37,758 nt of DNA, from positions 1 to 37,758 of the forward strand of contig JAVFKY010000010.1 in the NCBI GenBank assembly GCA_036169595.1, given 5' to 3'. The position numbers and the translations under genes are program-made. Source of the stretch: Dictyostelium firmibasis (taxonomy: Eukaryota > Evosea > Eumycetozoa > Dictyosteliales > Dictyosteliaceae). This document shows positions 1 through 33,081 of this stretch, in pieces; position 1 is the first letter of the stretch; each line of letters starts with the position of its first letter. The notes beneath the pieces are model-generated. The model had not been told where the DNA came from. It made no database searches and saw only the letters and a program-made list of their open reading frames with translations.

Positions 1-1945
1 AAAAATATAGAATAAATTAATTATATATATATCATTTTATTACCCTATCGATTAGCAATGTTTTTACATATAAATTATAATTTAATTAATTTATTTTATA
101 TTATAAAATAATTAAATAATTTTCATTGAAAATTAAAAAAAATTTCAGATAAAAGTTTTTATCTCTATCTTTGTGTAATTAGCATATCAGACATTGAAAA
201 CTTTTTTAAATAACTCCAAATAGACTATTAATGTTATTTATGATAGCTCGGGTACCTTGCAAGGTCATCGTATTATATTTAATCGGGTAAAAAACAATTT
301 CGAAGACAAAAAAAAATATTTTACAATTTAAAATTTTTAATTAGCCCATAACTAGCCTACAATGGTACCAATCGACTCCCTTTGAATTTAGACGCATATT
401 TATATATGAATTATATTTACAAGAGGTCATTAAGGTACATAAAATAAATTTTAAATTTTAAAAAATTGCAAACTTAATCAAAAATCAAAATCTCATAATG
501 ACCCCCAATAACAATGGGAGTTTGATTTTAGTAATCACCAACATCGATAACCTATAATTGTACGAGACAGTTATCGATTTTCGATTTAATTTAAAATTTT
601 GATTTTTTTGAAAAATCGTCAATTTGGTAGTTTTTCCACTTTTTTGAAAAATTTTATATGGGAAAAAAATTAAAAATTTCCAAAAAAAAATTAAACTAAT
701 CGACCCGTATCTAATCATGATGACCATATCACAGGACCATACCTACTTTTTTGAATACATAATCATTAATTACATATTTCATATGAGTGGTTTGTAAATA
801 TCATTAAATTATAAAAACTTGATTTTTTTGATTTTTTGACTTAGAAAAATTTTAAAAAAAAAAAAAAAAAATTGAAAATATATAGTAATTATTACTTTTA
901 TAATTTGAAATTACCGATTCAATCAATTATATATATATCATTTTATTACCCTATCGATTAGCAATGTTTTTATATATAAATTATAATTTAATTAATTTAT
1001 TTTATATTATAAAATAATTAAATAATTTTCATTGAAAATTAAAAAAAATTTCAGATAAAAGTTTTTATCTCTATCTTTGTGTAATTAGCATATCAGACAT
1101 TGAAAACTTTTTTAAATAACTCCAAATAGACTATTAATGTTATTTATGATAGCTCGGATACCTTGCAAGGTCATCGTATTATATTTAATCGGGTAAAAAA
1201 CAATTTCGAAGACAAAAAAAAATATTTTACAATTTAAAATTTTTAATTAGCCCATAACTAGCCTACAATGGTACCAATCGACTCCCTTTGAATTTAGACG
1301 CATATTTATATATTAATTATAATTACACGAGCTCATATAGGTACATAAAATAAATTTTAAATTTTAAAAAATTGCAAACTTAATCAAAAATCAAAATCTC
1401 ATAATGACCCCCAATAACAATGGGAGTTTGATTTTAGTAATCACCAACATCGATAACCTATAATTGTACGAGACAGTTATCGATTTTCGATTTAATTTAA
1501 AATTTTGATTTTTTTGAAAAATCGTCAATTTGGTAGTTTTTCCACTTTTTTGAAAAATTTTATATGGAAAAAAAAATTAAAAATTTCCAAAAAAAATTAA
1601 ATTAATCGACCCGTATCTAATCATGATGACCATATTATCGTATTATACATACTTTTTTGAATACAACATCATTAATTACATACTTTGTATGAGTGGTTTG
1701 TAAATATCATTAAATTATAAAAACTTGATTTTTTTGATTTTTTGACTTAGAAAAAATTTTAAAAAAAAAAATTGAAAATATATAGTAATTATTACTTTTA
1801 TAATTTGAAATTACCGAATGAATAAATTATAAATACTTCATTTTATTCCCTTATCGATTAGAAATCGTTTTATATATAAATTATAATTTAATTTATTCAT
1901 TTTAACCTATAAAATTATTAAATAATTTTCAATGAAAATAAAAAA
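1..1945 (+). repeat. Tandem ~0.9-kb units (two full, one partial), left arm
   Basis: The anchor CATTTTATTACCC occurs at 33 and 939, and a variant at 1839, giving periods of 906 and 900 bp. Units 1 and 2 are nearly identical throughout; for example both carry a ~240-bp block around 485-727 and its copy near 1390-1630. The third copy is diverged and stops near 1945. No coding content was recognised; the longest open frame is 80 codons and its start is not conserved in an obvious way. A more diverged copy lies outside the palindrome at about 34650-35290. Confidence 0.9.
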
Positions 1946-2162
1946 AAAAATTTTATTTTGATTTTTTTACAGTAATCATCAATATTATAATTTAAAATGA
2001 CCTTATAAACATTTATAAATTTATTAATTTTATAGGAATTTAAGTTTTATGCATTACAACGCTTTCAGCGATAGTTAATAAGCCCATTTCGATTTATAAA
2101 CATATAAATTACTCTATCTCTATTTTTTGGAAAAAAGGGAAAAATTAAAATTAATCCTTAAT

Positions 2163-2256
2163 GTTGATTTAGCTTAGTTGGTTAAGCTATAGGTTTTCAA
2201 AAACTTTGGGAAAAAAATTTTTCTGAGAGGTCGCGCGTTCGAATCCCGTCGATGAC
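2163..2256 (+). ncRNA. tRNA-like module 1 (best preserved), probable Pol III promoter
   Basis: The A-box TAGCTTAGTTGG (2170-2181) fits TRGYNNANNNGG fully and the B-box GTTCGAATC (2237-2245) fits GWTCRANNC fully. The D-stem pairs perfectly (GCTT with AAGC). The T-stem (2233-2237 with 2245-2249) pairs at 4 of 5 positions, one a wobble. The acceptor arms (2163-2169 with 2250-2256) pair only partly, with two mismatches and three wobbles. The A-to-B distance is longer than in a short tRNA, and no clean anticodon arm is visible, so I call it tRNA-derived rather than a working tRNA. An A-rich stretch follows, as in tRNA-derived SINE-like sequences. It points toward the palindrome centre. Confidence 0.7.
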
Positions 2257-2601
2257 AAAAAAATTGAAAAAAATGGACCCTCTGAGTATTTTAATGTTTT
2301 ATATATTATAATATTATTTAAATATAATGTATTTGGTATCAAAAGATAGCTTACTCCATTTTACATATTTATATATATATATGGAAATATCGGTTAATAA
2401 TTTTAATTAATATTTTTATATTACAAAAAAAAGTTTTAAAATTGAAAAACTTTTTCTATATCTATACATATCTAAATGAGCCCATTAATTATTGAAAATG
2501 GCTTTAAAATGTAGATAATATAGTTTTGTATATGAATATAGTTAATTTATTAGTTAATATAAAAATTAGATTACATAAATATGACTCAGTATAAATTTTG
2601 T

Positions 2602-2626
2602 AAAAAAAAAAAAAAAAAAAAAAAAA
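2602..2626 (+). repeat. 25-nt A homopolymer
   Basis: Unbroken run of 25 A. Its mirror in the right arm (30456-30480) is also 25 long. Runs of this length are unstable, so equal length in both arms argues for a very recent duplication, continuing homogenisation, or a single source molecule. Confidence 0.9.
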
Positions 2627-4371
2627 TCTACGAAAAACTTTTTTTAATATTAAAAAATTATGAAATGATCCAATAAATTCATTAAAATATGTCAGAATAT
2701 ACTTTAGACCATTTTATATTTATTTATACTAATTATATTAATTAAAATAATTTTTTTATATTTTTTTATATTTTTTAAAAAATTATGAAAAAAATAAAAA
2801 AAAACTATTATTACAATAATTTTTTTATTTGTTAGTTTTTAACATTGAAAACCTGTATTACTACTTATAATTTAATTACCCACCTTTTTAACTGGTTTTT
2901 AGATTATTTAGAATTCAATTTTAATGATTTTCTCAAATAATAGTCAAATCATGAATAGGACTTTAAATGACCTCCCAAATACCTTATTAAGGCTTTAATA
3001 GGTGCTAAATATAAAATTATTACCATTAGAGGTCTTATTACATGTTAAACATATACAAATAATTAATTTTATATGATTTTAAAAAAAAAAAATTAAAAAT
3101 TAAAAATATCATTTATATGTCAAAATTTAATTATACAAAGTTGTAAAAATACTCGGAAATTCTTAAAAATCGAGATCTACATTTTTTATTTGTTCCCATT
3201 GTTCAGGAAGTTCATTATAAAAACTTTTTTTTTTGGAAAAAAAAAAAAAAATTTCGATCCTAGTATTTCCAAAAAATAAATTTTATTTCATCCCCTATAT
3301 TTTTTTTAAATATATGAATTAATAGCTGAAAAGCAGATCTATTATAATATACTATTTTTATAATTTTATCAATTCATTTTAATACATAAAATAGTGTCCA
3401 AAAGTGCATCGAAAAAAAAAAAAAATTTGTAACTCAAAAAAATCGCTTATTTGTATATATATGAAATATTAAATAATCATGGATTGACATAACTGTCATT
3501 TCTCTACCTTTTACACTTTATTTGAGAATTTAACAGCCTAACCATTAGGATTTAAAAAAATATGGTCTACCCCCTGAATAGGCAATGAAATGACCCCATT
3601 TACACTTTAAATAATTATTAAAATATTAATATATTATATTTATTAATTTAAATGCTTAATATTTATTTGAAACAGATACAAATAATTTTTTTTTATCTCT
3701 ATCTTTAAAAAAGTTAAAAAAAATTTTTATATGTTAAAATAATGTTTAAAAAAATTGAAATATATCTTAAAAGATGTAAAATTGTGTTAGGAGTAGATTG
3801 ATATATTTTTCCAGTTATTATCTCTTAATTTAAAATTTTTAAAAATAAAATACTAACTCAGTGTCATAAAAAATTTTTAAAAAATTGAAAACATATAAAT
3901 TGTAATAAATATCTATATCTACCCAATATGTTATATTAATTGATATAAATAGAAACTATAAGACTGCAGCTATTCAACGACACCATATTGGATAGTTAAT
4001 GTGCTCAAATAATATTATAAAATACCATCACAAGTTGTCACTAAAAAATTAAAAAATTAAAAATTAAAAATATCTTTTATTTTTAAAGATATATATACCA
4101 AAATTAAATTTGATATATATTTAATGACTCCTAACATTATTACATATTCAAAATCAATATATCTCTTGATAAATTTTTGGATTTTTTTGGATACCCCCAA
4201 ATTATAGGACCATTTTTTAGTTTAAAATTAATATATTAACTAATTTTAAAAATATATATAAATAGACCTATATCTCACCTATATTTCAACAGTTTATTCA
4301 ATAGTTTTTATGCTCATTTAAACTTATAAAAATATAGATTAATGGCTTTCAAAAAAAAAAAAAAAAAAATT

Positions 4372-4391
4372 AGGTCGAGGGTTCGATTCTC
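4372..4391 (+). pseudogene. tRNA-like module 2, B-box remnant only
   Basis: A T-arm-like stretch (GGTCGAGGGTTCGATTCTC) with a full B-box GTTCGATTC (4381-4389) sits in phase with the ~2.1-kb array. The A-box position is taken by a long A run (about 4351-4369), so the front half is lost or replaced. Confidence 0.55.
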
Positions 4392-6496
4392 TTAAAAATT
4401 ATTTGACACCTCCTTACTAATTGACCATTTTATATCATTTAATTACATTAATTTCCCTTATAATTGTTATCATTAGATAGCTAACTCCATTTTAAACAAT
4501 AATATTTATATTTATAGATTTTAAATGTTAATTTTAATTAATTTTTTTTATATTAAAAAAACTTAAAAAAAATTTAAAAAAATAAAAAACTTTTAACATT
4601 TTTATATAATTTAAAATTAATATATTTTATTTTAATAAATATAAAAATATGTATAAAATTGAATTGTCTATCTATTAATATGTTATTTATTAATTTATAT
4701 TAAATTTTAACATCATAAAAATTAGTTGGTATAAATTCGGTAAAAAAAAAAAAAAAAAAATTTGGTTAAAAAAAAAAAAAAAACATCTTAAAAAAATATG
4801 AAATAACCCCATAAGCTTATGAAAATATGTTATAATATACTTTTTATCGTTCTATATTTAAATGTACTGCTTATATTAATTTATATATTTTTTTTATATT
4901 TTTTTTATATTTTTTAAAAAATTATTAAAAAAAATTAAAAAAATTATTATTACAATAATTTTTTTATTTGTTAGTTTTTAACATTGAAAACCTGTATTAC
5001 TACTTATAATTTAATTACCAACATTCCCAACTGGTTTTTAGATTATTTAAAATTTAATTTTAATGATTTTCTCAAATAATAGTCAAATCATGAATAGGAC
5101 TTTAAATGATCTCCCAAATACCTTATTAAGGCTCCAATAGGTACAAAAAATAATATTATTATCATTAGAGGTCTTATTACATGTTAAACATATACAAATA
5201 ATTAATTTTATATTTTTTTTTTTAAAATAAAAATAAATTTTAAAAATATTATTTATATATTAAAATTTAATTATACAAAGTTGTAAAAATACTCATAAAC
5301 TCTTAAAAATCGAGATCTACATTTTTTATTTGTTCCCATTGTTCAGGAAGTTCATTATAAAAACTTTTTTTTTTTGGTAAAAAAATATTTTTTTCGATCA
5401 GAGAATTTCCAAGAAATAAATTTTATTTCACCCCCCTATATTTTTTTTAAATATATGAATTAATAGCTGAAAAGCAGATCTATTATAATATACTATTTTT
5501 ATAATTTTATCAATTCATTTTAATACATAAAATAGTGTCCAAAAGTGCATCGAAAAAAAAAAAAATTTTGTAACTCAAAAAAATCGCTTATTTGTATATA
5601 TATGAAATATTAAATAATCATGGATTGACATAACTGTCATTTCTCTACCTTTTACACTTTATTTGAGAATTTAAAAGCCTAACCATTAGGATTTAAAAAA
5701 ATATGGTCTACCCCCTGAATAGGCAATGAAATGACCCCATTTACACTTTAAATAATTATTAAAATATTAATATATTATATTTATTAATTTAAATGCTTAA
5801 TATTTATTTGAAACAGATACAAATAATTTTTTTTTATCTCTATCTTTAAAAAAGTTAAAAAAAATTTTTATATATTAAAATAATCTTTAAAATATTTAAA
5901 ATATATATTAAAAGATGTAAAATTGTGTTACGAGTAGATTAATATATTTTACCAGTTACCATATATTAATTTAAGAATTTTAAAACTTAAATACTAACTC
6001 ACTGTCACAAAAAAAATTTAAAAAATTTAAAACATATAAATTACAATAAATATATACCATTAGCCTATATGTTCCCTATATTAGTATAAATAGAAACTAT
6101 AAGAATATACCTATATATATATATCATTTATAATAGTTAATATGCTCAAATAGTCTTATAAGATGCTATCACAAGTTGTCACTCAAAAATTAAAAAATTA
6201 AAAATTAAAAATATTTTTTATTTTAGGGGATGTATATACCAAAATTAAAATTCCAAGGTTTTAAATGATTCTTAACAAATCTGTATATTTAAAATCGACG
6301 TAGCTAATGTCAAAGTTTAAAATTTTTGGGAACACCCTACAGTAATTGACCATTTTTGAATTTAAAATGAGCATATTAACTATTTATAAATACATATTTA
6401 AAAAAATCAATATTTCAGCTATACAATGATATCATTTACTATATATTATATACTTATTTTAATCTATAAACATATAGATCAATGATTTCCAAAAAT

Positions 6497-6518
6497 GGCG
6501 AAAAAGTGAAATTTCGCC
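6497..6518 (+). other. Short hairpin upstream of tRNA-like module 3
   Basis: GGCGAAA (6497-6503) pairs with TTTCGCC (6512-6518) across an 8-nt loop, just before the tRNA-like module. It is mirrored at 26565-26586. Function unknown. Confidence 0.5.
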
Positions 6519-6523
6519 TTAAC

Positions 6524-6603
6524 TACACATTAGCTTAGCTGGTTAAGGGGTAAAAAAAATGAAAAAATTTCATGAGGTTGGGGGTTCGATTCTCGGAAAA
6601 GTT
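6524..6603 (+). ncRNA. tRNA-like module 3, probable Pol III promoter
   Basis: The A-box TAGCTTAGCTGG (6531-6542) and B-box GTTCGATTC (6584-6592) both fit the consensus, and the A-to-B distance is close to that of a tRNA gene. The D-stem pairs at 3 of 4 positions and the T-stem at about 3 of 5; the acceptor stem does not pair, so it is tRNA-derived rather than a functional tRNA. A run of A-rich sequence occupies the anticodon-arm region. It points toward the palindrome centre. Confidence 0.66.
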
Positions 6604-6955
6604 TTTAGAAGCATTCTGACTAATCGACCACTTTATATATATTAATGATCTTCTTTTTTTATATAATTGTTATCAATAGATAGCTTACTCCATGGAGCAT
6701 ATTTTAATACTAATAAGTCTACCTTTAATTAAAGTTTTAATAAATTTTTTTATATCACAAAAAAGTCAAAAATAAGTAATCTTTTGGAATATTAATATAA
6801 CTTAAAATGACCCCATAAGAACTCCTATATAGCACCAAAATGTAGATAATTTAGTTATCTATCTATTACCGGTTATTTTATTAGATAATATTAAAATTTC
6901 ATCCCAAAAAATGGTCTGCTATTAAAAACTGGAAAAAAAAAAAAATTTGAAAAAA

Positions 6956-7028
6956 GACTTAGAAAAAAAATTTTGAAATTTTTACGCATTAATTTATATG
7001 GCAAAAATTTTCGAAATTTTTCTAAGTC
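6956..7028. repeat. Inverted repeat with GACTTAGAAAAA ends
   Basis: GACTTAGAAAA at 6956 is answered by its complement ending CTAAGTC at 7028. The arms are about 25-28 bp with a few mismatches around a ~17-nt centre. The terminal sequence is the same TTTTTCTAAGT motif found scattered across the window. Mirrored at 26055-26127. It could be a small hairpin or a remnant of a miniature inverted-repeat element; no target duplication was identified. Confidence 0.55.
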
Positions 7029-8613
7029 AGAAGAATTTTGTAAAACCCCTCTAAAAATTGATGATTTAGGTATATAGGAACGCCATTTTCAAGAGCTATA
7101 CCCTAAATAATCATTCTGAATCTATTGGTACCACTTTGTCCGTTCCAAGTGCTCACCATAAAAACTTGTCTAAAAAGACCCGGTACCGAGTAACTGACAT
7201 TTCAAATGTGCTTAGAGTTGGTAGTTATATTTACTCGGAAGAATAGGACAAGCTAAACGAAGATTAAGACACATAAAATTTTGACAATTTTTCAATTGTA
7301 ACTTGTTAAAGTTTACCTATTCATCAGTTATTTTGACATTGATAGATTTGCCAACTCCTATTCACCTTACAGTTAATTTTTTTTTATCTGTTTCCAACAA
7401 ATAAAAATTTTAAAAAGATTTTAAATTTTTTTTCAAATTTTAAATTTTTAAAATTGATTGAAATTATATTTCCCAAAATTGAATTTTGAGTATATTGTAT
7501 ATTTTTTATAGTTAAGTCCGTTTACATTTGTCCAGACAACATAGAAGTTCATTTTAGTACCGATTTAGGTAAATTAGATCGTTTTAAAAAACAATGATAT
7601 AACTTTTTTATTTAAAGAGTTAACAATATTATATAAATCTTTTTATTAGTTACACAGGCATGTAATAAATTTTATAATAATATAAATTGTTTACTAGAAA
7701 ATTTTATAGGAAGTTCGGAAAAAAAAAAAAAAAATTAATATCCTCAAAAAAAAATTCTAAAAATATTCCGTCAAATAGAAATGGTAGATATTGATCTAAA
7801 ACCTCTAGAATCAAATTTTCGTTACACTATTCATAAATTTATAAAAGTTATTTATTTTTCAAAAAAAAAAAAATTTCAACATAAATTTTATTATTATAAT
7901 TTATGTATTAAAATTTAATTTTAAATAAATAAATATATAATATTCGAATAGAACGTTCAAAAATCTATTATATAATATAAAATTAAATAATTAAAAAATA
8001 AAATTCAATCATTTTCTAATTGTATAAACTTTCTCGAAAATTTTGAAGATTTTGATTTCTCGCATTAATTTTCGAAAAATTGAAAAAAAAAAATTTTTAC
8101 TATTTATTTGTATAATTTTTTTATTTGATAAATTTAATATTTCAAAGTGCTTCAAAATATCAAAAAAAAGATATGAACTATATCTATCCAATGAATATAA
8201 ATTTATTTATTTTAAATAAAAATATTCTATATAAATACTAAGTTTTATTAAAATTTTACACTAAAAAAATTGACCACACTTTTAACTTTATTGACCATTT
8301 TATAACCTGAAATGACCGGTTAAGTCGGACATATCATCCCAGTAGATTCATAATCAAATTCCTAATCTATTGGTGATAATTAGAATAATCTCACTATAAA
8401 TTTTAATAGATAAAATATTTTTTTAAGATTTAATTTTAATTATTTTTTAAAAAATATCAAATTTTTATAATGACCGTTTAAGTCTGCCAAACCTTCCCTA
8501 GCATACTTAAAATCATCGATAACCCCTATTTTGATGTAACGGTTGTTGTTTAAATCCATAAATATAAAATTTAATTTTATATGGTAAACCATTTTTTAAA
8601 ATTAATATGGTGA

Positions 8614-8631
8614 AATCGGAGTTCGAATCCC
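8614..8631 (+). pseudogene. tRNA-like module 4, B-box remnant
   Basis: AATCGGAGTTCGAATCCC contains a full B-box GTTCGAATC (8621-8629), in phase with the ~2-kb array. No A-box is recognisable upstream. Confidence 0.5.
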
Positions 8632-10353
8632 TAAAAACACAAATTAATAATTGAAATTAAGCTTTTATAAAAATCAAATTGGCACTAAAATATACTAGAA
8701 GAGCAGCTCTATTCACTAGAATAAAAGTATCTGTTTTATAAATTCAATTCATAAAATTTTTTTTTATAGTTATACAATTGCTACAAATTTCAAAAACAAA
8801 TAATTATCATAAATTTTTTATTTGTTGATAATTATCTCTAAAAATTTGTAATTACTCATAAATATCATATTTCTATGTTTTAAAAATAATGTATTTGTTA
8901 GTTTATTATCATAAATCAAAGTGTACAATATCTCTATCACTTTCGAATTTTAATTAAAATGACATGGGAAGTCTGCCAAAAAAATCAAGTAGGTATCATT
9001 TTTAACGCCATTACTGATGGCGGTATTTTTTTATTGTGTTAACTTTCGAATAACGCGGCCTATGTGAGAGATTTTTCAAAATTTGTGATATAAGTTTATA
9101 TATCGTAACATGGTCGTAAGTCATCGAAAATGAGTTATAATGACTCGTATTCAAAAGTTCTATCGTTATTTATCATTTTTATATGTATAGGTTTTAATTT
9201 TAAAATTTTGATTTTTCGAGAAAATTTTGAAATTATAATTTAATTATCTCTATGTAAAATATAAAATAGTGAGCCTATAAGTTCAATTTTTTTATGACAA
9301 TAAAAACTTGAAGAATTAGGCTATCATAATATATAGTTTTTATTAGTTGTAATGGTTATTAATACCTATAAAATGGTGCTCAAAGTTGCCACTCCCAAAA
9401 AAAAAATTTTGTATCTCAATTATCTTGATTATTTGATTCTCTACAACTTTCAATCCACCTCTAAAGTTCCGTTCTGGGTATAGAGAACCTACTGGACTAA
9501 TTTGGCCGACTTAAACTTAAATTTCACAGACTTGAAAAAAACCACTGACCCCCCTGAATAGGACCTGAAATGACCCCCCATAAATATGATATTTATATAT
9601 TATATAGTCATTGACCAGTAATGTAGGCTAGGGGTCAGTTTATAACTTGAACGTATACAAATAATAAAAAAAAAAATCATCTAAATTTTTAAACTTTTCA
9701 TATATGTTTATCGATGATCCTAACTTACATTGAATTCCTAAAAATCCGAGTAAGCATCTGTAAGAGTTCAGTACAACCTCCCAAAAAACTAGACCATTCC
9801 TGGGAGAAATATTGAATTTAAAAATACGATACTGGAAAATCCAAAAAAAAAAAAAAAAATTTGACCTAAACAAATAATTTAAAAATATTTTTTTATTTCA
9901 CCCCGTACAATAGCCATTCAATCGGTATAATAAACTAGACTCCAATATCTACTTACTGGGTTTTTAAATCCGACTTAAAGGCTCATTTCATTCAATTTTG
10001 TAAAGCTTAAAAGTTGGTCAAAAATCGTAAAAATTGAAAAAATTGAAAAAATTGCAAATTGAATAACTTTTTTATTTATCATCCAATGTCGTTCAAATTT
10101 TCCCAGTAAGGGTTTTGAAACATGGAGAACAATCTCTAATGGTTTAAATTGCTATAGCTCGATTCAAAGTCTCAACTATTTCTTTTTAGACCATTTTATA
10201 ATTTTAAATGACCCCATAAACTCTTGCCAATAAGATTTTTGACATCTACACTCATTTTCCTATTACCCATTACTTCTCCGGGGTTCGTATGTCTTCATTT
10301 CAGTTTATAAACCAATTGGGCTTCTAAAACGAAAAAAAAAAAAAAAAATTATT

Positions 10354-10434
10354 TCCAACTTTGCTTGGCTGGTTAAGGGGTTGACTAAAAAATGCGAAAA
10401 TTTCAAGGTCAAGTGTTCGAGTCCCGGAAAAAAA
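10354..10434 (+). ncRNA. tRNA-like module 5 (degenerate)
   Basis: The A-box-like TTGCTTGGCTGG (10361-10372) has two departures from consensus; the B-box GTTCGAGTC (10415-10423) is intact. The stretch GCTGGTTAAGGGGT after the A-box is shared with module 3, which shows common descent. The T-stem and acceptor stem pair poorly. It is the innermost recognisable member of the series. Confidence 0.55.
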
Positions 10435-10599
10435 AATGGATAGTCCGTCACTAAGTACATAGTTTAGGGGGTGAAATATTTATAGAAATTAATATATTTA
10501 GCATCATTGGATAGTCTACTCAATTACGAATCGAATGACACCATTTTTATAAAAAAAGGGGGTCATTTTAATAATTTTTTTTTATTAAACTTTTTTTTA

Positions 10600-12510: not shown

Positions 12511-12514
12511 ACTT

Positions 12515-12546
12515 GACAAGGGAAGTTTGCCGAAAAATCCGAGTAA
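12515..12546 (+). repeat. 42-bp element, diverged partial copy
   Basis: Keeps ACAAGGGAAGTTTGCCGAA and TCCGAGTAA, but has lost the leading CGCCTG portion and differs in the middle. Outermost recognisable copy in the left arm. Confidence 0.75.
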
Positions 12547-19297: not shown

Positions 19298-19339
19298 TTA
19301 CTCGGAAGATTCGGCAAACTTCCCTTGCAGGCGTTCTGA
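19298..19339 (-). repeat. 42-bp element, mirror of the 13747 copy
   Basis: Full copy in the right arm, identical to its partner. Confidence 0.9.
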
Positions 19340-20076: not shown

Positions 20077-20118
20077 TTACTCGGAAGATTCGGCAAACTT
20101 CCCTTGCAGGCGTTCTGA
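20077..20118 (-). repeat. 42-bp element, mirror of the 12968 copy
   Basis: Full copy in the right arm, identical to its partner. Confidence 0.9.
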
Positions 20119-20539
20119 GATAAATCGAAAATACAACTATATGAATCGTGAACCATTCAACTTTTGATAGTAATAGTTTAAGAAAAATTTGTCCGACAAA
20201 TTTTTTGGCGCACATTGAATGAATAATTTAATATTTTTAAAATTTTTTTTTAAAGTCAAAAAAAAAATTTTTTTAACTTTTTCTGAAAATGAACTTCGTA
20301 TTTTTTTTTTTTTTTTTTTCGATTAAAGTTAACCTATATCGATTTATACATCATTTGATAGATAATTTTTTTCCCTATCGATTCATGTAATTTTCCAAAA
20401 AATTTGATATAATTATCATTAAAAAAACATTGTCACAAAATTTTTTTAGAGTACGAACTTCGTGATTTTTTGATGTCAATTTTTGCTCATCGAGTAAATA
20501 AAATTTATTTGCCATAATATTTAGTATGTTTCCACATCC

Positions 20540-20571
20540 TTACTCGGATTTTTCGGCAAACTTCCCTTGTC
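20540..20571 (-). repeat. 42-bp element, mirror of the partial 12515 copy
   Basis: Diverged partial copy in the right arm with the same changes as its partner. Confidence 0.75.
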
Positions 20572-20574
20572 AAG

Positions 20575-22485
20575 TATACTACCTGTGACTCTAGAACTTT
20601 GACAAGGGTTATCCATTTTTTATAAATTTTTTATACACCAGTTACTGTGTATAAAAGATGTAACTTTTAATTCTATACCAGTTAGTCATAACTACCATAA
20701 TTTTTGGGTATCAAAAAAAAAAAAAAATCGATTTAAAATTGCATTTTTTTGGTCAGTAAAATGACCATAAATCGTTACTATATGTTGGGAATTGGCCGAG
20801 AACTTCGTATGTTTACCTCCTAATGGGTTTATACTTATGTTCCAAAAATCATATTTCAACTCCAAGAAAAATGAAATGCCGAGACTTTTTTGAACACTAT
20901 GGTGAAAAAGAAAATGACGGCTACATATTAATTTGATTAAAATAAAATTTGAAAGATCGAAAATTCAAGATGTTGGAGTTGAGAGCTAGTTTTTTAATAG
21001 AATGTTCCTTTGTACCAGGAGCATAACATATCTAATTCTCATAGGAATCTGGCAATATATAAGAGAGATTTTGGTCTTACAAGTTATTAATATGGTAAAA
21101 TTTTTCAAAAAAATTTCGAAATTTTTCTAAGTTAAAAAATTTTAAATTTTTTTTTTTTTTTACTAACACTTTCAAGAGGGTCAATTGATTATGAAATATT
21201 AATATTTATTAATGATTGACCATTGAATCGATAGATCTACTCTTTGTGAACATTAATAAGCTAATATTTAATATTTTAAAGGTAATTAATAATTTTAAAA
21301 ATATTGTACAAAGTTTATTTCATGAAAAAAAATTTTATGACCTAATTTTATAATAATTAATTTTATTAAATAATTATAAAATTACATTCAAAAGATTGAT
21401 ATTGAGCTTGTAAACATATATATATGTAATTTATAATGATTATAGGTCATTTCAATTTTTAAACTTATTTTATATTGAAATTATTAAAAATTAAAAATTG
21501 AAAATTTTCAATTTTCAACTTTTTTGTAAAAATTATTTAGTTGATGTAACTTTATTCACTACCTTTCGCTTAAAGTGTAAACGATGTAAAATGGAATGTT
21601 CTACATTCTATCAAAAAATTATTATTCAAATCAATCATTTTAATTTATAAAATTACCCCTGACGGTTTTTTGAAAATTTTTTTTTTTTTTTTTTTTTCAA
21701 TATAATCATTAAAAAATATGTTTATATATGATAACTTTAATTTAGCTAAGACTTTAAAACCGAGTAAGTAGTAGACCCTAATACAAGTATTTTAAATATA
21801 AAATTATAAAAATAGAGGATCATTTAAGTATAAAAACCCTTCATCGGAGATAGCTATTTTTTATGCTAATCAAGTTAACAGTTTTGTAACAATATTTTAT
21901 GAGGTAAAACTTTCTCCCGGGTAGTAACCTTTGATGACATTAACTTCATTAAAGAGTTATCTATATTTTCATATTAGTAACTATATATCTATAACAACAT
22001 TTTAATTTATAAAATTACTCCGATAGGTTTAGGTCAAAATTTTGAATTTTTTTGAAAAATTTTTTCTAAGTTAAAAAATTCCAAAAAAGTCAAGTTTTCA
22101 AAATGAGCTCGGGGATCGATGGGAGTTTCAAAAAAGTTAGTACCGCTCGATTTTAAGGTATTCTAGACTAAAATTATTAACATACGGGGTAAAAAATTTT
22201 TATTTTTAAAAAATAAGGTAACTATTGTATAGGTATACATATAATTTATATATATAAATCATTAGAATACTATTATGCACCTATTGGCGCTAATTTGAAG
22301 GTCTCAAGTGGTCAGGAAAAAAAGTCAACGCTAACAAAGTTATCATAATTAATTTTTTGATAAATTAATACTATGTAGAAAATAATCTCCACCATTTTTT
22401 AAGGTAAAACCATTTTACAGAATTTAAAACGGAGTTCATCATAAAAACTTTTTTTTTTTAAAAAAAATTTCCCATATTAATTTTT
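20575..22485. other. A+T-rich stretch of the right arm, nothing recognised
   Basis: Mirror of 10600-12510. No gene, RNA gene or clear repeat boundary was seen on either strand. Confidence 0.6.
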
Positions 22486-22651
22486 TTAAAAAAAAGTTTA
22501 ATAAAAAAAAATTATTAAAATGACCCCCTTTTTTTATAAAAATGGTGTCATTCGATTCGTAATTGAGTAGACTATCCAATGATGCTAAATATATTAATTT
22601 CTATAAATATTTCACCCCCTAAACTATGTACTTAGTGACGGACTATCCATT

Positions 22652-22732
22652 TTTTTTTCCGGGACTCGAACACTTGACCTTGAAATTTTCGCATTTTTTA
22701 GTCAACCCCTTAACCAGCCAAGCAAAGTTGGA
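22652..22732 (-). ncRNA. tRNA-like module 5, right arm mirror
   Basis: Mirror of 10354-10434; A-box-like sequence at 22714-22725 and B-box at 22663-22671 on the minus strand. An adjoining A/T homopolymer differs in length by about two between the arms. Confidence 0.55.
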
Positions 22733-24451
22733 AATAATTTTTTTTTTTTTTTCGTTTTAGAAGCCCAATTGGTTTATAAACTGAAATGAAGACATACGAA
22801 CCCCGGAGAAGTAATGGGTAATAGGAAAATGAGTGTAGATGTCAAAAATCTTATTGGCAAGAGTTTATGGGGTCATTTAAAATTATAAAATGGTCTAAAA
22901 AGAAATAGTTGAGACTTTGAATCGAGCTATAGCAATTTAAACCATTAGAGATTGTTCTCCATGTTTCAAAACCCTTACTGGGAAAATTTGAACGACATTG
23001 GATGATAAATAAAAAAGTTATTCAATTTGCAATTTTTTCAATTTTTTCAATTTTTACGATTTTTGACCAACTTTTAAGCTTTACAAAATTGAATGAAATG
23101 AGCCTTTAAGTCGGATTTAAAAACCCAGTAAGTAGATATTGGAGTCTAGTTTATTATACCGATTGAATGGCTATTGTACGGGGTGAAATAAAAAAATATT
23201 TTTAAATTATTTGTTTAGGTCAAATTTTTTTTTTTTTTTTGGATTTTCCAGTATCGTATTTTTAAATTCAATATTTCTCCCAGGAATGGTCTAGTTTTTT
23301 GGGAGGTTGTACTGAACTCTTACAGATGCTTACTCGGATTTTTAGGAATTCAATGTAAGTTAGGATCATCGATAAACATATATGAAAAGTTTAAAAATTT
23401 AGATGATTTTTTTTTTTATTATTTGTATACGTTCAAGTTATAAACTGACCCCTAGCCTACATTACTGGTCAATGACTATATAATATATAAATATCATATT
23501 TATGGGGGGTCATTTCAGGTCCTATTCAGGGGGGTCAGTGGTTTTTTTCAAGTCTGTGAAATTTAAGTTTAAGTCGGCCAAATTAGTCCAGTAGGTTCTC
23601 TATACCCAGAACGGAACTTTAGAGGTGGATTGAAAGTTGTAGAGAATCAAATAATCAAGATAATTGAGATACAAAATTTTTTTTTTGGGAGTGGCAACTT
23701 TGAGCACCATTTTATAGGTATTAATAACCATTACAACTAATAAAAACTATATATTATGATAGCCTAATTCTTCAAGTTTTTATTGTCATAAAAAAATTGA
23801 ACTTATAGGCTCACTATTTTATATTTTACATAGAGATAATTAAATTATAATTTCAAAATTTTCTCGAAAAATCAAAATTTTAAAATTAAAACCTATACAT
23901 ATAAAAATGATAAATAACGATAGAACTTTTGAATACGAGTCATTATAACTCATTTTCGATGACTTACGACCATGTTACGATATATAAACTTATATCACAA
24001 ATTTTGAAAAATCTCTCACATAGGCCGCGTTATTCGAAAGTTAACACAATAAAAAAATACCGCCATCAGTAATGGCGTTAAAAATGATACCTACTTGATT
24101 TTTTTGGCAGACTTCCCATGTCATTTTAATTAAAATTCGAAAGTGATAGAGATATTGTACACTTTGATTTATGATAATAAACTAACAAATACATTATTTT
24201 TAAAACATAGAAATATGATATTTATGAGTAATTACAAATTTTTAGAGATAATTATCAACAAATAAAAAATTTATGATAATTATTTGTTTTTGAAATTTGT
24301 AGCAATTGTATAACTATAAAAAAAAATTTTATGAATTGAATTTATAAAACAGATACTTTTATTCTAGTGAATAGAGCTGCTCTTCTAGTATATTTTAGTG
24401 CCAATTTGATTTTTATAAAAGCTTAATTTCAATTATTAATTTGTGTTTTTA

Positions 24452-24469
24452 GGGATTCGAACTCCGATT
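24452..24469 (-). pseudogene. tRNA-like module 4 remnant, right arm mirror
   Basis: Mirror of 8614-8631; the B-box lies on the minus strand at 24454-24462. Confidence 0.5.
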
Positions 24470-26479
24470 TCACCATATTAATTTTAAAAAATGGTTTACC
24501 ATATAAAATTAAATTTTATATTTATGGATTTAAACAACAACCGTTACATCAAAATAGGGGTTATCGATGATTTTAAGTATGCTAGGGAAGGTTTGGCAGA
24601 CTTAAACGGTCATTATAAAAATTTGATATTTTTTAAAAAATAATTAAAATTAAATCTTAAAAAAATATTTTATCTATTAAAATTTATAGTGAGATTATTC
24701 TAATTATCACCAATAGATTAGGAATTTGATTATGAATCTACTGGGATGATATGTCCGACTTAACCGGTCATTTCAGGTTATAAAATGGTCAATAAAGTTA
24801 AAAGTGTGGTCAATTTTTTTAGTGTAAAATTTTAATAAAACTTAGTATTTATATAGAATATTTTTATTTAAAATAAATAAATTTATATTCATTGGATAGA
24901 TATAGTTCATATCTTTTTTTTGATATTTTGAAGCACTTTGAAATATTAAATTTATCAAATAAAAAAATTATACAAATAAATAGTAAAAATTTTTTTTTTT
25001 CAATTTTTCGAAAATTAATGCGAGAAATCAAAATCTTCAAAATTTTCGAGAAAGTTTATACAATTAGAAAATGATTGAATTTTATTTTTTAATTATTTAA
25101 TTTTATATTATATAATAGATTTTTGAACGTTCTATTCGAATATTATATATTTATTTATTTAAAATTAAATTTTAATACATAAATTATAATAATAAAATTT
25201 ATGTTGAAATTTTTTTTTTTTTGAAAAATAAATAACTTTTATAAATTTATGAATAGTGTAACGAAAATTTGATTCTAGAGGTTTTAGATCAATATCTACC
25301 ATTTCTATTTGACGGAATATTTTTAGAATTTTTTTTTGAGGATATTAATTTTTTTTTTTTTTTTCCGAACTTCCTATAAAATTTTCTAGTAAACAATTTA
25401 TATTATTATAAAATTTATTACATGCCTGTGTAACTAATAAAAAGATTTATATAATATTGTTAACTCTTTAAATAAAAAAGTTATATCATTGTTTTTTAAA
25501 ACGATCTAATTTACCTAAATCGGTACTAAAATGAACTTCTATGTTGTCTGGACAAATGTAAACGGACTTAACTATAAAAAATATACAATATACTCAAAAT
25601 TCAATTTTGGGAAATATAATTTCAATCAATTTTAAAAATTTAAAATTTGAAAAAAAATTTAAAATCTTTTTAAAATTTTTATTTGTTGGAAACAGATAAA
25701 AAAAAATTAACTGTAAGGTGAATAGGAGTTGGCAAATCTATCAATGTCAAAATAACTGATGAATAGGTAAACTTTAACAAGTTACAATTGAAAAATTGTC
25801 AAAATTTTATGTGTCTTAATCTTCGTTTAGCTTGTCCTATTCTTCCGAGTAAATATAACTACCAACTCTAAGCACATTTGAAATGTCAGTTACTCGGTAC
25901 CGGGTCTTTTTAGACAAGTTTTTATGGTGAGCACTTGGAACGGACAAAGTGGTACCAATAGATTCAGAATGATTATTTAGGGTATAGCTCTTGAAAATGG
26001 CGTTCCTATATACCTAAATCATCAATTTTTAGAGGGGTTTTACAAAATTCTTCTGACTTAGAAAAATTTCGAAAATTTTTGCCATATAAATTAATGCGTA
26101 AAAATTTCAAAATTTTTTTTCTAAGTCTTTTTTCAAATTTTTTTTTTTTTCCAGTTTTTAATAGCAGACCATTTTTTGGGATGAAATTTTAATATTATCT
26201 AATAAAATAACCGGTAATAGATAGATAACTAAATTATCTACATTTTGGTGCTATATAGGAGTTCTTATGGGGTCATTTTAAGTTATATTAATATTCCAAA
26301 AGATTACTTATTTTTGACTTTTTTGTGATATAAAAAAATTTATTAAAACTTTAATTAAAGGTAGACTTATTAGTATTAAAATATGCTCCATGGAGTAAGC
26401 TATCTATTGATAACAATTATATAAAAAAAGAAGATCATTAATATATATAAAGTGGTCGATTAGTCAGAATGCTTCTAAA

Positions 26480-26559
26480 AACTTTTCCGAGAATCGAACC
26501 CCCAACCTCATGAAATTTTTTCATTTTTTTTACCCCTTAACCAGCTAAGCTAATGTGTA
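26480..26559 (-). ncRNA. tRNA-like module 3, right arm mirror
   Basis: Mirror of 6524-6603, with the A-box at 26541-26552 and the B-box at 26491-26499 on the minus strand. Confidence 0.66.
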
Positions 26560-28691
26560 GTTAAGGCGAAATTTCACTTTTTCGCCATTTTTGGAAATCA
26601 TTGATCTATATGTTTATAGATTAAAATAAGTATATAATATATAGTAAATGATATCATTGTATAGCTGAAATATTGATTTTTTTAAATATGTATTTATAAA
26701 TAGTTAATATGCTCATTTTAAATTCAAAAATGGTCAATTACTGTAGGGTGTTCCCAAAAATTTTAAACTTTGACATTAGCTACGTCGATTTTAAATATAC
26801 AGATTTGTTAAGAATCATTTAAAACCTTGGAATTTTAATTTTGGTATATACATCCCCTAAAATAAAAAATATTTTTAATTTTTAATTTTTTAATTTTTGA
26901 GTGACAACTTGTGATAGCATCTTATAAGACTATTTGAGCATATTAACTATTATAAATGATATATATATATAGGTATATTCTTATAGTTTCTATTTATACT
27001 AATATAGGGAACATATAGGCTAATGGTATATATTTATTGTAATTTATATGTTTTAAATTTTTTAAATTTTTTTTGTGACAGTGAGTTAGTATTTAAGTTT
27101 TAAAATTCTTAAATTAATATATGGTAACTGGTAAAATATATTAATCTACTCGTAACACAATTTTACATCTTTTAATATATATTTTAAATATTTTAAAGAT
27201 TATTTTAATATATAAAAATTTTTTTTAACTTTTTTAAAGATAGAGATAAAAAAAAATTATTTGTATCTGTTTCAAATAAATATTAAGCATTTAAATTAAT
27301 AAATATAATATATTAATATTTTAATAATTATTTAAAGTGTAAATGGGGTCATTTCATTGCCTATTCAGGGGGTAGACCATATTTTTTTAAATCCTAATGG
27401 TTAGGCTTTTAAATTCTCAAATAAAGTGTAAAAGGTAGAGAAATGACAGTTATGTCAATCCATGATTATTTAATATTTCATATATATACAAATAAGCGAT
27501 TTTTTTGAGTTACAAAATTTTTTTTTTTTTCGATGCACTTTTGGACACTATTTTATGTATTAAAATGAATTGATAAAATTATAAAAATAGTATATTATAA
27601 TAGATCTGCTTTTCAGCTATTAATTCATATATTTAAAAAAAATATAGGGGGGTGAAATAAAATTTATTTCTTGGAAATTCTCTGATCGAAAAAAATATTT
27701 TTTTACCAAAAAAAAAAAGTTTTTATAATGAACTTCCTGAACAATGGGAACAAATAAAAAATGTAGATCTCGATTTTTAAGAGTTTATGAGTATTTTTAC
27801 AACTTTGTATAATTAAATTTTAATATATAAATAATATTTTTAAAATTTTTTTTTTTTTTTTTAAAAATCATATAAAATTAATTATTTGTATATGTTTAAC
27901 ATGTAATAAGACCTCTAATGATAATAATATTATTTTTTGTACCTATTGGAGCCTTAATAAGGTATTTGGGAGATCATTTAAAGTCCTATTCATGATTTGA
28001 CTATTATTTGAGAAAATCATTAAAATTAAATTTTAAATAATCTAAAAACCAGTTGGGAATGTTGGTAATTAAATTATAAGTAGTAATACAGGTTTTCAAT
28101 GTTAAAAACTAACAAATAAAAAAATTATTGTAATAATAATTTTTTTAATTTTTTTTAATAATTTTTTAAAAAATATAAAAAAAATATAAAAAAAATATAT
28201 AAATTAATATAAGCAGTACATTTAAATATAGAACGATAAAAAGTATATTATAACATATTTTCATAAGCTTATGGGGTTATTTCATATTTTTTTAAGATGT
28301 TTTTTTTTTTTTTTTTCACCAAATTTTTTTTTTTTTTTTTTTACCGAATTTATACCAACTAATTTTTATGATGTTAAAATTTAATATAAATTAATAAATA
28401 ACATATTAATAGATAGACAATTCAATTTTATACATATTTTTATATTTATTAAAATAAAATATATTAATTTTAAATTATATAAAAATGTTAAAAGTTTTTT
28501 ATTTTTTTAAATTTTTTTTAAGTTTTTTTAATATAAAAAAAATTAATTAAAATTAACATTTAAAATCTATAAATATAAATATTATTGTTTAAAATGGAGT
28601 TAGCTATCTAATGATAACAATTATAAGGGAAATTAATGTAATTAAATGATATAAAATGGTCAATTAGTAAGGAGGTGTCAAATAATTTTTA

Positions 28692-28713
28692 AGAGAATCG
28701 AACCCTCGACCTA
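28692..28713 (-). pseudogene. tRNA-like module 2 remnant, right arm mirror
   Basis: Mirror of the 4372-4391 remnant; the B-box lies on the minus strand at 28695-28703 and the A-box is absent. Confidence 0.55.
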
Positions 28714-30825
28714 ATTTTTTTTTTTTTTTTTTTGAAAGCCATTAATCTATATTTTTATAAGTTTAAATGAGCATAAAAACTATTGAATAAACTGTTGAAA
28801 TATAGGTGAGATATAGGTCTATTTATATATATTTTTAAAATTAGTTAATATATTAATTTTAAACTAAAAAATGGTCCTATAATTTGGGGGTATCCAAAAA
28901 AATCCAAAAATTTATCAAGAGATATATTGATTTTGAATATGTAATAATGTTAGGAGTCATTAAATATATATCAAATTTAATTTTGGTATATATATCTTTA
29001 AAAATAAAAGATATTTTTAATTTTTAATTTTTTAATTTTTTAGTGACAACTTGTGATGGTATTTTATAATATTATTTGAGCACATTAACTATCCAATATG
29101 GTGTCGTTGAATAGCTGCAGTCTTATAGTTTCTATTTATATCAATTAATATAACATATTGGGTAGATATAGATATTTATTACAATTTATATGTTTTCAAT
29201 TTTTTAAAAATTTTTTATGACACTGAGTTAGTATTTTATTTTTAAAAATTTTAAATTAAGAGATAATAACTGGAAAAATATATCAATCTACTCCTAACAC
29301 AATTTTACATCTTTTAAGATATATTTCAATTTTTTTAAACATTATTTTAACATATAAAAATTTTTTTTAACTTTTTTAAAGATAGAGATAAAAAAAAATT
29401 ATTTGTATCTGTTTCAAATAAATATTAAGCATTTAAATTAATAAATATAATATATTAATATTTTAATAATTATTTAAAGTGTAAATGGGGTCATTTCATT
29501 GCCTATTCAGGGGGTAGACCATATTTTTTTAAATCCTAATGGTTAGGCTGTTAAATTCTCAAATAAAGTGTAAAAGGTAGAGAAATGACAGTTATGTCAA
29601 TCCATGATTATTTAATATTTCATATATATACAAATAAGCGATTTTTTTGAGTTACAAATTTTTTTTTTTTCGATGCACTTTTGGACACTATTTTATGTAT
29701 TAAAATGAATTGATAAAATTATAAAAATAGTATATTATAATAGATCTGCTTTTCAGCTATTAATTCATATATTTAAAAAAAATATAGGGGATGAAATAAA
29801 ATTTATTTTTTGGAAATACTAGGATCGAAATTTTTTTTTTTTTTTCCAAAAAAAAAAGTTTTTATAATGAACTTCCTGAACAATGGGAACAAATAAAAAA
29901 TGTAGATCTCGATTTTTAAGAATTTCCGAGTATTTTTACAACTTTGTATAATTAAATTTTGACATATAAATGATATTTTTAATTTTTAATTTTTTTTTTT
30001 TAAAATCATATAAAATTAATTATTTGTATATGTTTAACATGTAATAAGACCTCTAATGGTAATAATTTTATATTTAGCACCTATTAAAGCCTTAATAAGG
30101 TATTTGGGAGGTCATTTAAAGTCCTATTCATGATTTGACTATTATTTGAGAAAATCATTAAAATTGAATTCTAAATAATCTAAAAACCAGTTAAAAAGGT
30201 GGGTAATTAAATTATAAGTAGTAATACAGGTTTTCAATGTTAAAAACTAACAAATAAAAAAATTATTGTAATAATAGTTTTTTTTTATTTTTTTCATAAT
30301 TTTTTAAAAAATATAAAAAAATATAAAAAAATTATTTTAATTAATATAATTAGTATAAATAAATATAAAATGGTCTAAAGTATATTCTGACATATTTTAA
30401 TGAATTTATTGGATCATTTCATAATTTTTTAATATTAAAAAAAGTTTTTCGTAGATTTTTTTTTTTTTTTTTTTTTTTTTACAAAATTTATACTGAGTCA
30501 TATTTATGTAATCTAATTTTTATATTAACTAATAAATTAACTATATTCATATACAAAACTATATTATCTACATTTTAAAGCCATTTTCAATAATTAATGG
30601 GCTCATTTAGATATGTATAGATATAGAAAAAGTTTTTCAATTTTAAAACTTTTTTTTGTAATATAAAAATATTAATTAAAATTATTAACCGATATTTCCA
30701 TATATATATATAAATATGTAAAATGGAGTAAGCTATCTTTTGATACCAAATACATTATATTTAAATAATATTATAATATATAAAACATTAAAATACTCAG
30801 AGGGTCCATTTTTTTCAATTTTTTT

Positions 30826-30919
30826 GTCATCGACGGGATTCGAACGCGCGACCTCTCAGAAAAATTTTTTTCCCAAAGTTTTTGAAAACCTATAGCTTAA
30901 CCAACTAAGCTAAATCAAC
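30826..30919 (-). ncRNA. tRNA-like module 1, right arm mirror
   Basis: Mirror of 2163-2256 with identical A- and B-boxes, transcribed on the minus strand, again toward the palindrome centre. Confidence 0.7.
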
Positions 30920-31136
30920 ATTAAGGATTAATTTTAATTTTTCCCTTTTTTCCAAAAAATAGAGATAGAGTAATTTATATGTTTATAAATCGAAATGGGC
31001 TTATTAACTATCGCTGAAAGCGTTGTAATGCATAAAACTTAAATTCCTATAAAATTAATAAATTTATAAATGTTTATAAGGTCATTTTAAATTATAATAT
31101 TGATGATTACTGTAAAAAAATCAAAATAAAATTTTT

Positions 31137-33081
31137 TTTTTTATTTTCATTGAAAATTATTTAATAATTTTATAGGTTAAAATGAATAAATTAAATTATA
31201 ATTTATATATAAAACGATTTCTAATCGATAAGGGAATAAAATGAAGTATTTATAATTTATTCATTCGGTAATTTCAAATTATAAAAGTAATAATTACTAT
31301 ATATTTTCAATTTTTTTTTTTAAAATTTTTTCTAAGTCAAAAAATCAAAAAAATCAAGTTTTTATAATTTAATGATATTTACAAACCACTCATACAAAGT
31401 ATGTAATTAATGATGTTGTATTCAAAAAAGTATGTATAATACGATAATATGGTCATCATGATTAGATACGGGTCGATTAATTTAATTTTTTTTGGAAATT
31501 TTTAATTTTTTTTTCCATATAAAATTTTTCAAAAAAGTGGAAAAACTACCAAATTGACGATTTTTCAAAAAAATCAAAATTTTAAATTAAATCGAAAATC
31601 GATAACTGTCTCGTACAATTATAGGTTATCGATGTTGGTGATTACTAAAATCAAACTCCCATTGTTATTGGGGGTCATTATGAGATTTTGATTTTTGATT
31701 AAGTTTGCAATTTTTTAAAATTTAAAATTTATTTTATGTACCTATATGAGCTCGTGTAATTATAATTAATATATAAATATGCGTCTAAATTCAAAGGGAG
31801 TCGATTGGTACCATTGTAGGCTAGTTATGGGCTAATTAAAAATTTTAAATTGTAAAATATTTTTTTTTGTCTTCGAAATTGTTTTTTACCCGATTAAATA
31901 TAATACGATGACCTTGCAAGGTATCCGAGCTATCATAAATAACATTAATAGTCTATTTGGAGTTATTTAAAAAAGTTTTCAATGTCTGATATGCTAATTA
32001 CACAAAGATAGAGATAAAAACTTTTATCTGAAATTTTTTTTAATTTTCAATGAAAATTATTTAATTATTTTATAATATAAAATAAATTAATTAAATTATA
32101 ATTTATATATAAAAACATTGCTAATCGATAGGGTAATAAAATGATATATATATAATTGATTGAATCGGTAATTTCAAATTATAAAAGTAATAATTACTAT
32201 ATATTTTCAATTTTTTTTTTTTTTTTTTAAAATTTTTCTAAGTCAAAAAATCAAAAAAATCAAGTTTTTATAATTTAATGATATTTACAAACCACTCATA
32301 TGAAATATGTAATTAATGATTATGTATTCAAAAAAGTAGGTATGGTCCTGTGATATGGTCATCATGATTAGATACGGGTCGATTAGTTTAATTTTTTTTT
32401 GGAAATTTTTAATTTTTTTCCCATATAAAATTTTTCAAAAAAGTGGAAAAACTACCAAATTGACGATTTTTCAAAAAAATCAAAATTTTAAATTAAATCG
32501 AAAATCGATAACTGTCTCGTACAATTATAGGTTATCGATGTTGGTGATTACTAAAATCAAACTCCCATTGTTATTGGGGGTCATTATGAGATTTTGATTT
32601 TTGATTAAGTTTGCAATTTTTTAAAATTTAAAATTTATTTTATGTACCTTAATGACCTCTTGTAAATATAATTCATATATAAATATGCGTCTAAATTCAA
32701 AGGGAGTCGATTGGTACCATTGTAGGCTAGTTATGGGCTAATTAAAAATTTTAAATTGTAAAATATTTTTTTTTGTCTTCGAAATTGTTTTTTACCCGAT
32801 TAAATATAATACGATGACCTTGCAAGGTACCCGAGCTATCATAAATAACATTAATAGTCTATTTGGAGTTATTTAAAAAAGTTTTCAATGTCTGATATGC
32901 TAATTACACAAAGATAGAGATAAAAACTTTTATCTGAAATTTTTTTTAATTTTCAATGAAAATTATTTAATTATTTTATAATATAAAATAAATTAATTAA
33001 ATTATAATTTATATGTAAAAACATTGCTAATCGATAGGGTAATAAAATGATATATATATAATTAATTTATTCTATATTTTT
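31137..33081 (-). repeat. Tandem ~0.9-kb units, right arm mirror
   Basis: Mirror of 1-1945 in reverse orientation. It ends at 33081 only because the left partner is cut by the window start. The sequence beyond (33082 onward) continues as related satellite. Confidence 0.9.

What the first reader, a model, noticed from the sequence alone, without database searches (positions are those of the whole stretch)
1..33081. A 33-kb near-perfect palindrome with no genes
Two 16.5-kb arms match almost base for base around a 39-nt spacer. Known giant palindromes (primate Y amplicons, rDNA palindromes in some protists, inverted duplications from fold-back repair) usually carry genes; this one appears to be pure satellite. 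Maintenance at near-identity implies a very recent origin, arm-to-arm gene conversion, or an assembly fold-back.
Basis: partly seen in the sequence, partly recalled or inferred. Interest (0 to 1): 0.85.

Follow-up and report, generated by a model that had tools for sequence, protein, structure and literature searches.

The report
Gene-free giant palindrome, probable rDNA core
The window really does contain a 33-kb, nearly perfect DNA palindrome in which no gene was found; its anatomy best fits the inner spacer and centre of the self-standing ribosomal-DNA palindrome that social amoebae carry, although an assembly fold-back has not been excluded.

Summary
Bases 1-33081 form two arms around a 39-nt spacer at 16523-16561, and no gene was found. 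The palindrome is open-ended: its left arm begins at base 1.

The divergence is step-like. Of 12 substitution events between the arms, 10 lie in the innermost 605 bp (1.65%); the outer 15.9 kb shows seven homopolymer-length differences, one T/G and one 21-bp AT patch. An older, diverged inverted repeat thus sits at the centre of much younger, or homogenised, arms.

"Pure satellite" is only partly right: the arm has a few repeated blocks plus AT-rich DNA without strong repeats. It also carries over-represented Pol III B boxes, two with stringent A boxes. This matches what is published for the Dictyostelium extrachromosomal rDNA palindrome: gene-free spacer, B boxes in duplicated segments, a central region of asymmetry.

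Best explanation (0.55): the core of a dictyostelid-type rDNA palindrome. Main rival (0.3): fold-back or arm collapse in library or assembly at a real inverted repeat. No dictyostelid sequence was on hand and no rRNA gene was found in the window, so membership is unproven.

The parts
1..16522 (+). left palindrome arm, cut by the window start
   Evidence: self-BLAST and arm alignment
16523..16561 (.). 39-nt non-palindromic spacer
   Evidence: arm alignment; no sequencing-adapter-like sequence seen by eye (adapter recalled, not searched)
16562..33081 (-). right palindrome arm
15918..17166 (.). inner, older inverted repeat: 605-bp arms with 10 substitutions (1.65%) plus spacer
   Evidence: its innermost 206 nt (16440-16645) fold at -89 kcal/mol as DNA against a shuffle mean of -15
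10..1948 (+). 906-bp tandem repeat, 2.1 copies (mirror copy at 31134-33072)
   Evidence: TRF and self-BLAST
2330..6495 (+). segmental duplication: 2330-4355 against 4461-6495, 83.7% over 2052 columns; B boxes 2237, 4381 and 6584 lie within about 110 bp of the ends of its copies
   Evidence: box positions
2170..2245 (+). A/B-box locus: TAGCTTAGTTG, 56-bp gap, GTTCGAATC, with G 7 bp upstream of the A box
6531..6592 (+). A/B-box locus: TAGCTTAGCTG, 42-bp gap, GTTCGATTC; no +1 G (T instead)
4381..4389 (+). B box GTTCRANNC without a stringent A box (one permissive match)
8621..8629 (+). B box; neither stringent nor permissive A box
10415..10423 (+). B box; permissive A box only
14411..14419 (+). 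B box without a stringent A box (permissive motif not tried)
35469..36099 (-). three B boxes (35469, 35786, 36091) in the right flank, without stringent A boxes
   Evidence: the last two lie in a 305-bp tandem duplication
33082..37758 (+). right flank: the arm continued outwards, without a mirror copy because the window starts at base 1; it includes diverged (about 80%) copies of the 0.9-kb repeat

Best explanation
The window is the centre and inner, non-transcribed spacer of an extrachromosomal ribosomal-DNA palindrome of the dictyostelid (social amoeba) type, cut before the rRNA genes are reached. Shown here: the palindrome, the absence of any detected gene, the small asymmetric centre, the step-like divergence, and the excess of B boxes with two tRNA-like A/B loci. 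Inferred: the organism group, the rRNA genes further out, and the multicopy state. As to how it works, I infer that two mirror-image half-elements are joined at a diverged central inverted repeat, and that the arms stay identical because a lost or broken half is recopied from the other, either by fold-back priming at the central repeat or by arm-to-arm conversion. The published suggestion is that A/B boxes seat Pol III factors that may help replication of the element.
For: Published anatomy of the D. discoideum element (PMC5391098, section 14 part 1; [quoted passage not shown] The window, searched with the same B-box and stringent A-box motifs: 9 B boxes in 21.2 kb of non-redundant DNA (0.42 per kb; 22 in 44 kb is 0.50) against a mean of 1.9 and a maximum of 7 in 200 shuffles; 2 stringent A/B loci against a mean of 0.035 and a maximum of 1. 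B boxes 2237, 4381 and 6584 flank the copies of a duplicated block, and loci 4381 and 6584 (4354-4754 against 6552-6945, 68.5%) and 6584 and 10415 (6530-6600 against 10360-10431, 77%) are themselves alike. GC is 23%. D. firmibasis, 76% A+T, has two small contigs matching the D. discoideum palindrome with only one rRNA gene set assembled, among six small contigs of 24-118 kb (PMC11193728, passages), so a contig of this kind and size range is plausible.
Against: No rRNA gene was found and none of nine telomere-type motifs, tried as three tandem copies (the A(G)n ends of D. discoideum were not tried). No dictyostelid sequence could be compared; four of the six D. discoideum rDNA-end primers in PMC6759168 were tried and do not match, with 6 or more mismatches at best (they lie at the telomeric end, so this says little). 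B boxes also occur in tRNA-derived repeats of many eukaryotes (general knowledge). The nine B boxes are not independent, since several lie in repeated blocks, and at least one of the 200 shuffles reached 7. Only one of the two A/B loci has the +1 G that all six D. discoideum loci have. Read depth and extrachromosomal state are unknown.
Confidence: 0.55

Rival explanations
1. Assembly or library artefact: a genuine inverted repeat (about 1.25 kb, 98.3% identical arms, 39-nt spacer) in AT-rich repetitive DNA made the assembler, or a strand-switching polymerase, fold back, so the 16-kb left sequence is written twice. A variant: a real palindrome whose slightly different arms were collapsed by the assembler into one sequence.
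For: The step-like profile is what a retraced path at an inverted repeat would give; the palindrome starts exactly at base 1 and the flank continues only on one side; seven of the nine outer difference sites are homopolymer lengths, and 9 of 30 left-arm runs of 11 nt or more touch a difference while 0 of 203 runs of 6-10 nt do. Fold-back reads are a known unresolved artefact in long-read data (PMC12870357, passages), and amplified DNA yields many artificial palindromes (PMC6218980, passages).
Against: An un-split template-complement read needs no inverted repeat at its turning point (general knowledge) and would not put 10 substitutions next to it; no adapter-like sequence is seen in the spacer (by eye). 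The patch at 5214-5234 differs by 7 substitutions without a length change, unlike a homopolymer error. The B-box excess is not explained by an artefact, but does not exclude one.
Confidence: 0.3
2. A natural chromosomal giant palindrome of another eukaryote (for example on a sex or B chromosome), kept identical by arm-to-arm gene conversion that spares the innermost 600 bp.
For: Near-identity with substitutions concentrated at the centre; conversion keeps human Y palindrome arms above 99.9% similar (PMC3723533, passages).
Against: Escape from conversion near the centre might be expected to give a gradient (my inference); instead the differences end abruptly, and their mean distance from the spacer (360 bp) is not smaller than the uniform expectation of 303 bp (10 events, little power). 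No gene was found here, while most Y palindrome arms are enriched in genes (PMC3723533, passages).
Confidence: 0.1
3. A one-off in vivo fold-back at inverted repeat units in an unknown eukaryote: break, resection, annealing of the inverted repeats, fill-in synthesis, with no link to rDNA.
For: The anatomy is that of fold-back priming: an inverted repeat from the parental sequence at the centre and copied arms outside it (PMC10622511, passages); in yeast, divergent inverted repeats fold back in long single-stranded DNA, with only heterology beyond 25% suppressing it (PMC10164571, abstract). An approximately 890-bp periodicity of the arm seems to run across the divergence edge (two short matches at offsets 887 and 896, the second weak, besides one at 894 outside the edge), so the central repeat appears to belong to the surrounding array.
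Against: In the sae2 mutant yeast clones analysed the mismatches of the imperfect repeat were corrected, whereas here ten remain. It leaves the B-box excess unexplained.
Confidence: 0.05

Closest known systems
Dictyostelium discoideum extrachromosomal rDNA palindrome (about 88 kb, GenBank AY171066)
   Same: mirror-image arms, long stretches without known genes, B boxes at 0.4-0.5 per kb with stringent A/B loci, some in duplicated blocks, small asymmetric centre
Tetrahymena rDNA palindrome with its M repeats
   Same: two inverted repeats around a short non-palindromic spacer at the centre (42-bp repeats, 28-bp spacer; PMC5182062, passages); here 605-bp repeats, 39-bp spacer
   Different: M repeats are identical and short; the element is about 21 kb in all; the mechanism here is only inferred
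Fold-back inverted duplications (yeast, human, cancer)
   Same: inverted repeat at the centre of copied arms
   Different: spontaneous yeast cases have 3-15 bp repeats at their centres (PMC10622511, passages); here the central repeat is about 600 bp
Primate Y palindromes
   Same: near-identical large arms
   Different: most arms are enriched in genes, and they are chromosomal, in most cases with non-duplicated spacers (PMC3723533, passages)

Membership tests
dictyostelid extrachromosomal rDNA palindrome | rRNA genes on the arms | tested here: inconclusive
   none found in the window; the window reaches only 21 kb from the centre and the D. discoideum arm is about 44 kb
dictyostelid extrachromosomal rDNA palindrome | mirror-image arms around a small central region of asymmetry | tested here: met
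dictyostelid extrachromosomal rDNA palindrome | no other transcription units in the inner spacer | tested here: met
   no gene found (10 frames searched in Pfam; transcription itself not testable)
dictyostelid extrachromosomal rDNA palindrome | over-represented B boxes, some with A boxes, in duplicated segments | tested here: met
   9 B boxes and 2 A/B loci against 1.9 and 0.035 expected; duplication and similarity between loci
dictyostelid extrachromosomal rDNA palindrome | +1 G 7 bp upstream of the A box | tested here: inconclusive
   present at 1 of 2 loci
dictyostelid extrachromosomal rDNA palindrome | sequence similarity to a dictyostelid rDNA element | not testable with these tools
   no eukaryote collection on hand; four primers of the telomeric end did not match
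dictyostelid extrachromosomal rDNA palindrome | linear, about 100 copies per nucleus, with its own ends | not testable with these tools
   no reads; none of nine telomere-type motifs found
fold-back palindrome at an inverted repeat | older inverted repeat at the centre, copied near-identical arms outside | tested here: met
   10 of 12 substitution events in the inner 605 bp, change point 15918 (10 of 18 with the patch counted in full)

The most novel reading that the evidence does not exclude
The step in divergence is the scar of how such rDNA palindromes are renewed: a half-element is turned into a full palindrome by fold-back priming at a standing, diverged central inverted repeat, much as Tetrahymena makes its palindrome at the M repeats, so that everything outside the central repeat is recopied and identical while the repeat itself escapes and ages. 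If so, dictyostelid rDNA elements would be renewed by repeated palindrome formation rather than by ordinary arm-to-arm conversion.
Probability: 0.17. Interest if true: 0.68.

Novelty: new member of a known kind. Interest (0 to 1): 0.42.

Why it matters
If the contig is a dictyostelid rDNA core, it is an ordinary but useful further view of an element that is hard to assemble (in D. firmibasis only one rRNA gene set was assembled), and its divergence step gives a direct test of how giant rDNA palindromes are kept identical, an open question for Dictyostelium, whose element is said not to come from a chromosomal master copy (PMC5391098, passages). If it is an artefact, the step profile shows a simple way to recognise fold-backs at real inverted repeats.

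Tried and rejected
Missed SMRTbell adapter: rejected as sole cause, since the spacer shows no adapter-like sequence (by eye, adapter recalled) and substitutions are concentrated at the turn. Inserted fold-back transposon at the centre: not supported, because a roughly 890-bp periodicity seems to run through the edge and no ORF with a Pfam match was found. An older, decayed palindrome centred near 14.25 kb, suggested by the orientation of four 33-bp boxes (- - + +): one search gave somewhat raised scores for some unit pairs with the box masked in one of them (for the mirror pair 12200-13016 with 15560-16541, 43 against a maximum of 34 in 30 single-base shuffles; for the inner mirror pair 31 against a maximum of 38, so not raised); with the boxes masked throughout, none of the 6 inverted matches listed lay on that symmetry line, so I dropped it. 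Plant microRNA matches at the centre in Rfam (MIR837, MIR530) are far below gathering scores and I read them as reflecting the long hairpin. True tRNA genes: none (and a run with introns); a very relaxed ARAGORN run listed 67 low-grade hits, which I disregard. No match in phages (12000-16541), plasmids (32000-37758), E. coli genomes (37300-37758); the rest of the window was not searched there. Exact patterns gave 0 in viral contigs for two patterns and 0 in genome contigs for one; a 16-base pattern hit 17 viral contigs once each, which I take as chance, without following them. A search for a fold-back account of Dictyostelium rDNA found 0 papers holding 5 of 6 terms; that is one narrow search. 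Rows set aside before the count of 12 events: the spacer and the seven homopolymer-length differences (13 columns), and the extra A at 4766.
Full report
Observation. The window is 37758 bases, 23% GC. Bases 1-33081 align with their own reverse complement at 99.73%, and the arm alignment fits a 39-nt spacer at 16523-16561. The finding's coordinates are right. The left arm starts at base 1, so the palindrome may run further; the right flank 33082-37758 simply continues the right arm outwards.

Genes and repeats. Ten frames gave no Pfam match (5 left-arm, 2 right-arm counterparts, 3 flank). The longest stop-free frame in the unique arm is 94 aa against a mean of 96 in 40 shuffles; the number of frames of 50 aa or more is 47 against a mean of 35, range 23-48, so at the upper edge. 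One flank frame of 159 aa exceeds its 40 shuffles (maximum 131) but lies mostly in a 53% GC end piece and has no Pfam match. Rfam gave 7 matches at E up to 1, none at its gathering score. Repeats: a 906-bp unit in 2.1 copies, a 2.05-kb duplication, and diverged 0.9-kb repeats in the flank. Much of the arm beyond 6.6 kb is AT-rich DNA without strong repeats, so it is not pure satellite.

Divergence profile. I counted the 5214-5234 patch as one event and 4766 as one, and set aside homopolymer lengths and the spacer. That leaves 12 substitution events, 10 of them at 15918-16507. The rates are 1.65% (95% interval 0.79-3.0%) in 605 bp and 0.013% (0.0015-0.045%) in 15917 bp. The change point is 15918 (15789-15918), and 0 of 2000 random placements reached its likelihood ratio. 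Counting all 7 substitutions of the patch gives 10 of 18, the same change point (15786-15918) and again 0 of 2000. Within the inner block the events do not crowd towards the spacer. The centre therefore looks like an older inverted repeat inside arms that were copied or homogenised later. A roughly 890-bp periodicity of the arm seems to continue across the edge (matches 15274 with 16161, offset 887, and 15522 with 16418, offset 896, the latter only E 0.019), so the central repeat looks like part of the array rather than an insert.

What gives such a profile. Fold-back priming in cells: in yeast, inverted duplications have parental inverted repeats at their centres (PMC10622511, passages), and divergent repeats can fold back in single-stranded DNA (PMC10164571, abstract). 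An assembler leaving an inverted repeat by the wrong exit, or collapsing two slightly different arms, would give the same letters (inference). Arm-to-arm conversion that stops short of the centre is a third route. Sequence alone cannot separate these; against the first, the sae2 yeast clones had their mismatches corrected, while ten remain here.

The tRNA-like boxes. Reading the arm showed five GTTCGANTC motifs at about 2-kb spacing, all on one strand. PMC5391098 (section 14 part 1 read; further passages) describes B and A/B boxes on the D. discoideum extrachromosomal rDNA palindrome. PMC9012585 (text part 1 of 2) reports retrotransposon insertions upstream of three of its A/B positions. With the B-box motif of PMC5391098 the window has 6 in the arm and 3 in the flank against a mean of 1.9 (maximum 7) in 200 shuffles, and 2 stringent A/B loci against 0.035 (maximum 1). 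My script allowed A-B gaps of 25-62 bp, against 30-60 in the paper; the two gaps found are 56 and 42. Caveats: several B boxes lie in repeated blocks, only one of the two A/B loci has the +1 G, and tRNA-derived repeats with B boxes are common in eukaryotes (general knowledge).

Identification. An AT-rich palindrome without detected genes, with a small asymmetric centre and B boxes in or beside duplicated blocks, is what the inner spacer of a dictyostelid rDNA palindrome should look like. D. firmibasis has two small contigs matching the D. discoideum palindrome (PMC11193728, passages); whether the window is one of them I could not test. I put this reading at 0.55. The other amoebozoan cases seen differ: Physarum has a 60-kb rDNA palindrome; Didymium has a 20-kb rDNA chromosome with a single rRNA unit and a 4.2-kb palindrome whose halves are 99% identical (PMC13182076, passages).

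Novelty. As an object it would be a new member of a known kind. The step-like divergence may be new for this kind of element; I did not see the 2003 sequence paper (not held), so I cannot say whether the D. discoideum centre shows it.

Noticed in passing
12975-13007 (-), 13754-13786 (-), 14673-14705 (+), 15568-15600 (+) and mirror copies: A 33-bp box, ACTCGGAAGATTCGGCAAACTTCCCTTGCAGGC, is present in four perfect copies per arm at 0.8-0.9 kb spacing in both orientations, while the DNA between them is hardly alike; 8 perfect copies in the window against 0 in 100 shuffles. It looks constrained or recently spread.
   Followed up: partly
33291-36982: A 15-bp motif, CTCTTCCTACGAGTA, occurs 8 times (up to 2 mismatches) in both orientations in the right flank only, including one back-to-back inverted pair at 33291-33318 (mean 0.05 in shuffles).
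   Followed up: no
37381-37758: The last 378 bases are 53% GC against 22% beside them, with four perfect copies of GGAACGCCATTTGTAT; one 3-mismatch copy per arm lies at 7077 and 25991. It might be the edge of an rDNA promoter or enhancer region, or a joined foreign piece.
   Followed up: partly
5214-5234 and mirror 27849-27869: The arms differ by 7 substitutions in 21 AT-rich bases with no length change; by eye each arm resembles the paralogous stretch within 3030-3130 in a different part. Neither slippage nor a simple sequencing error readily explains it.
   Followed up: partly
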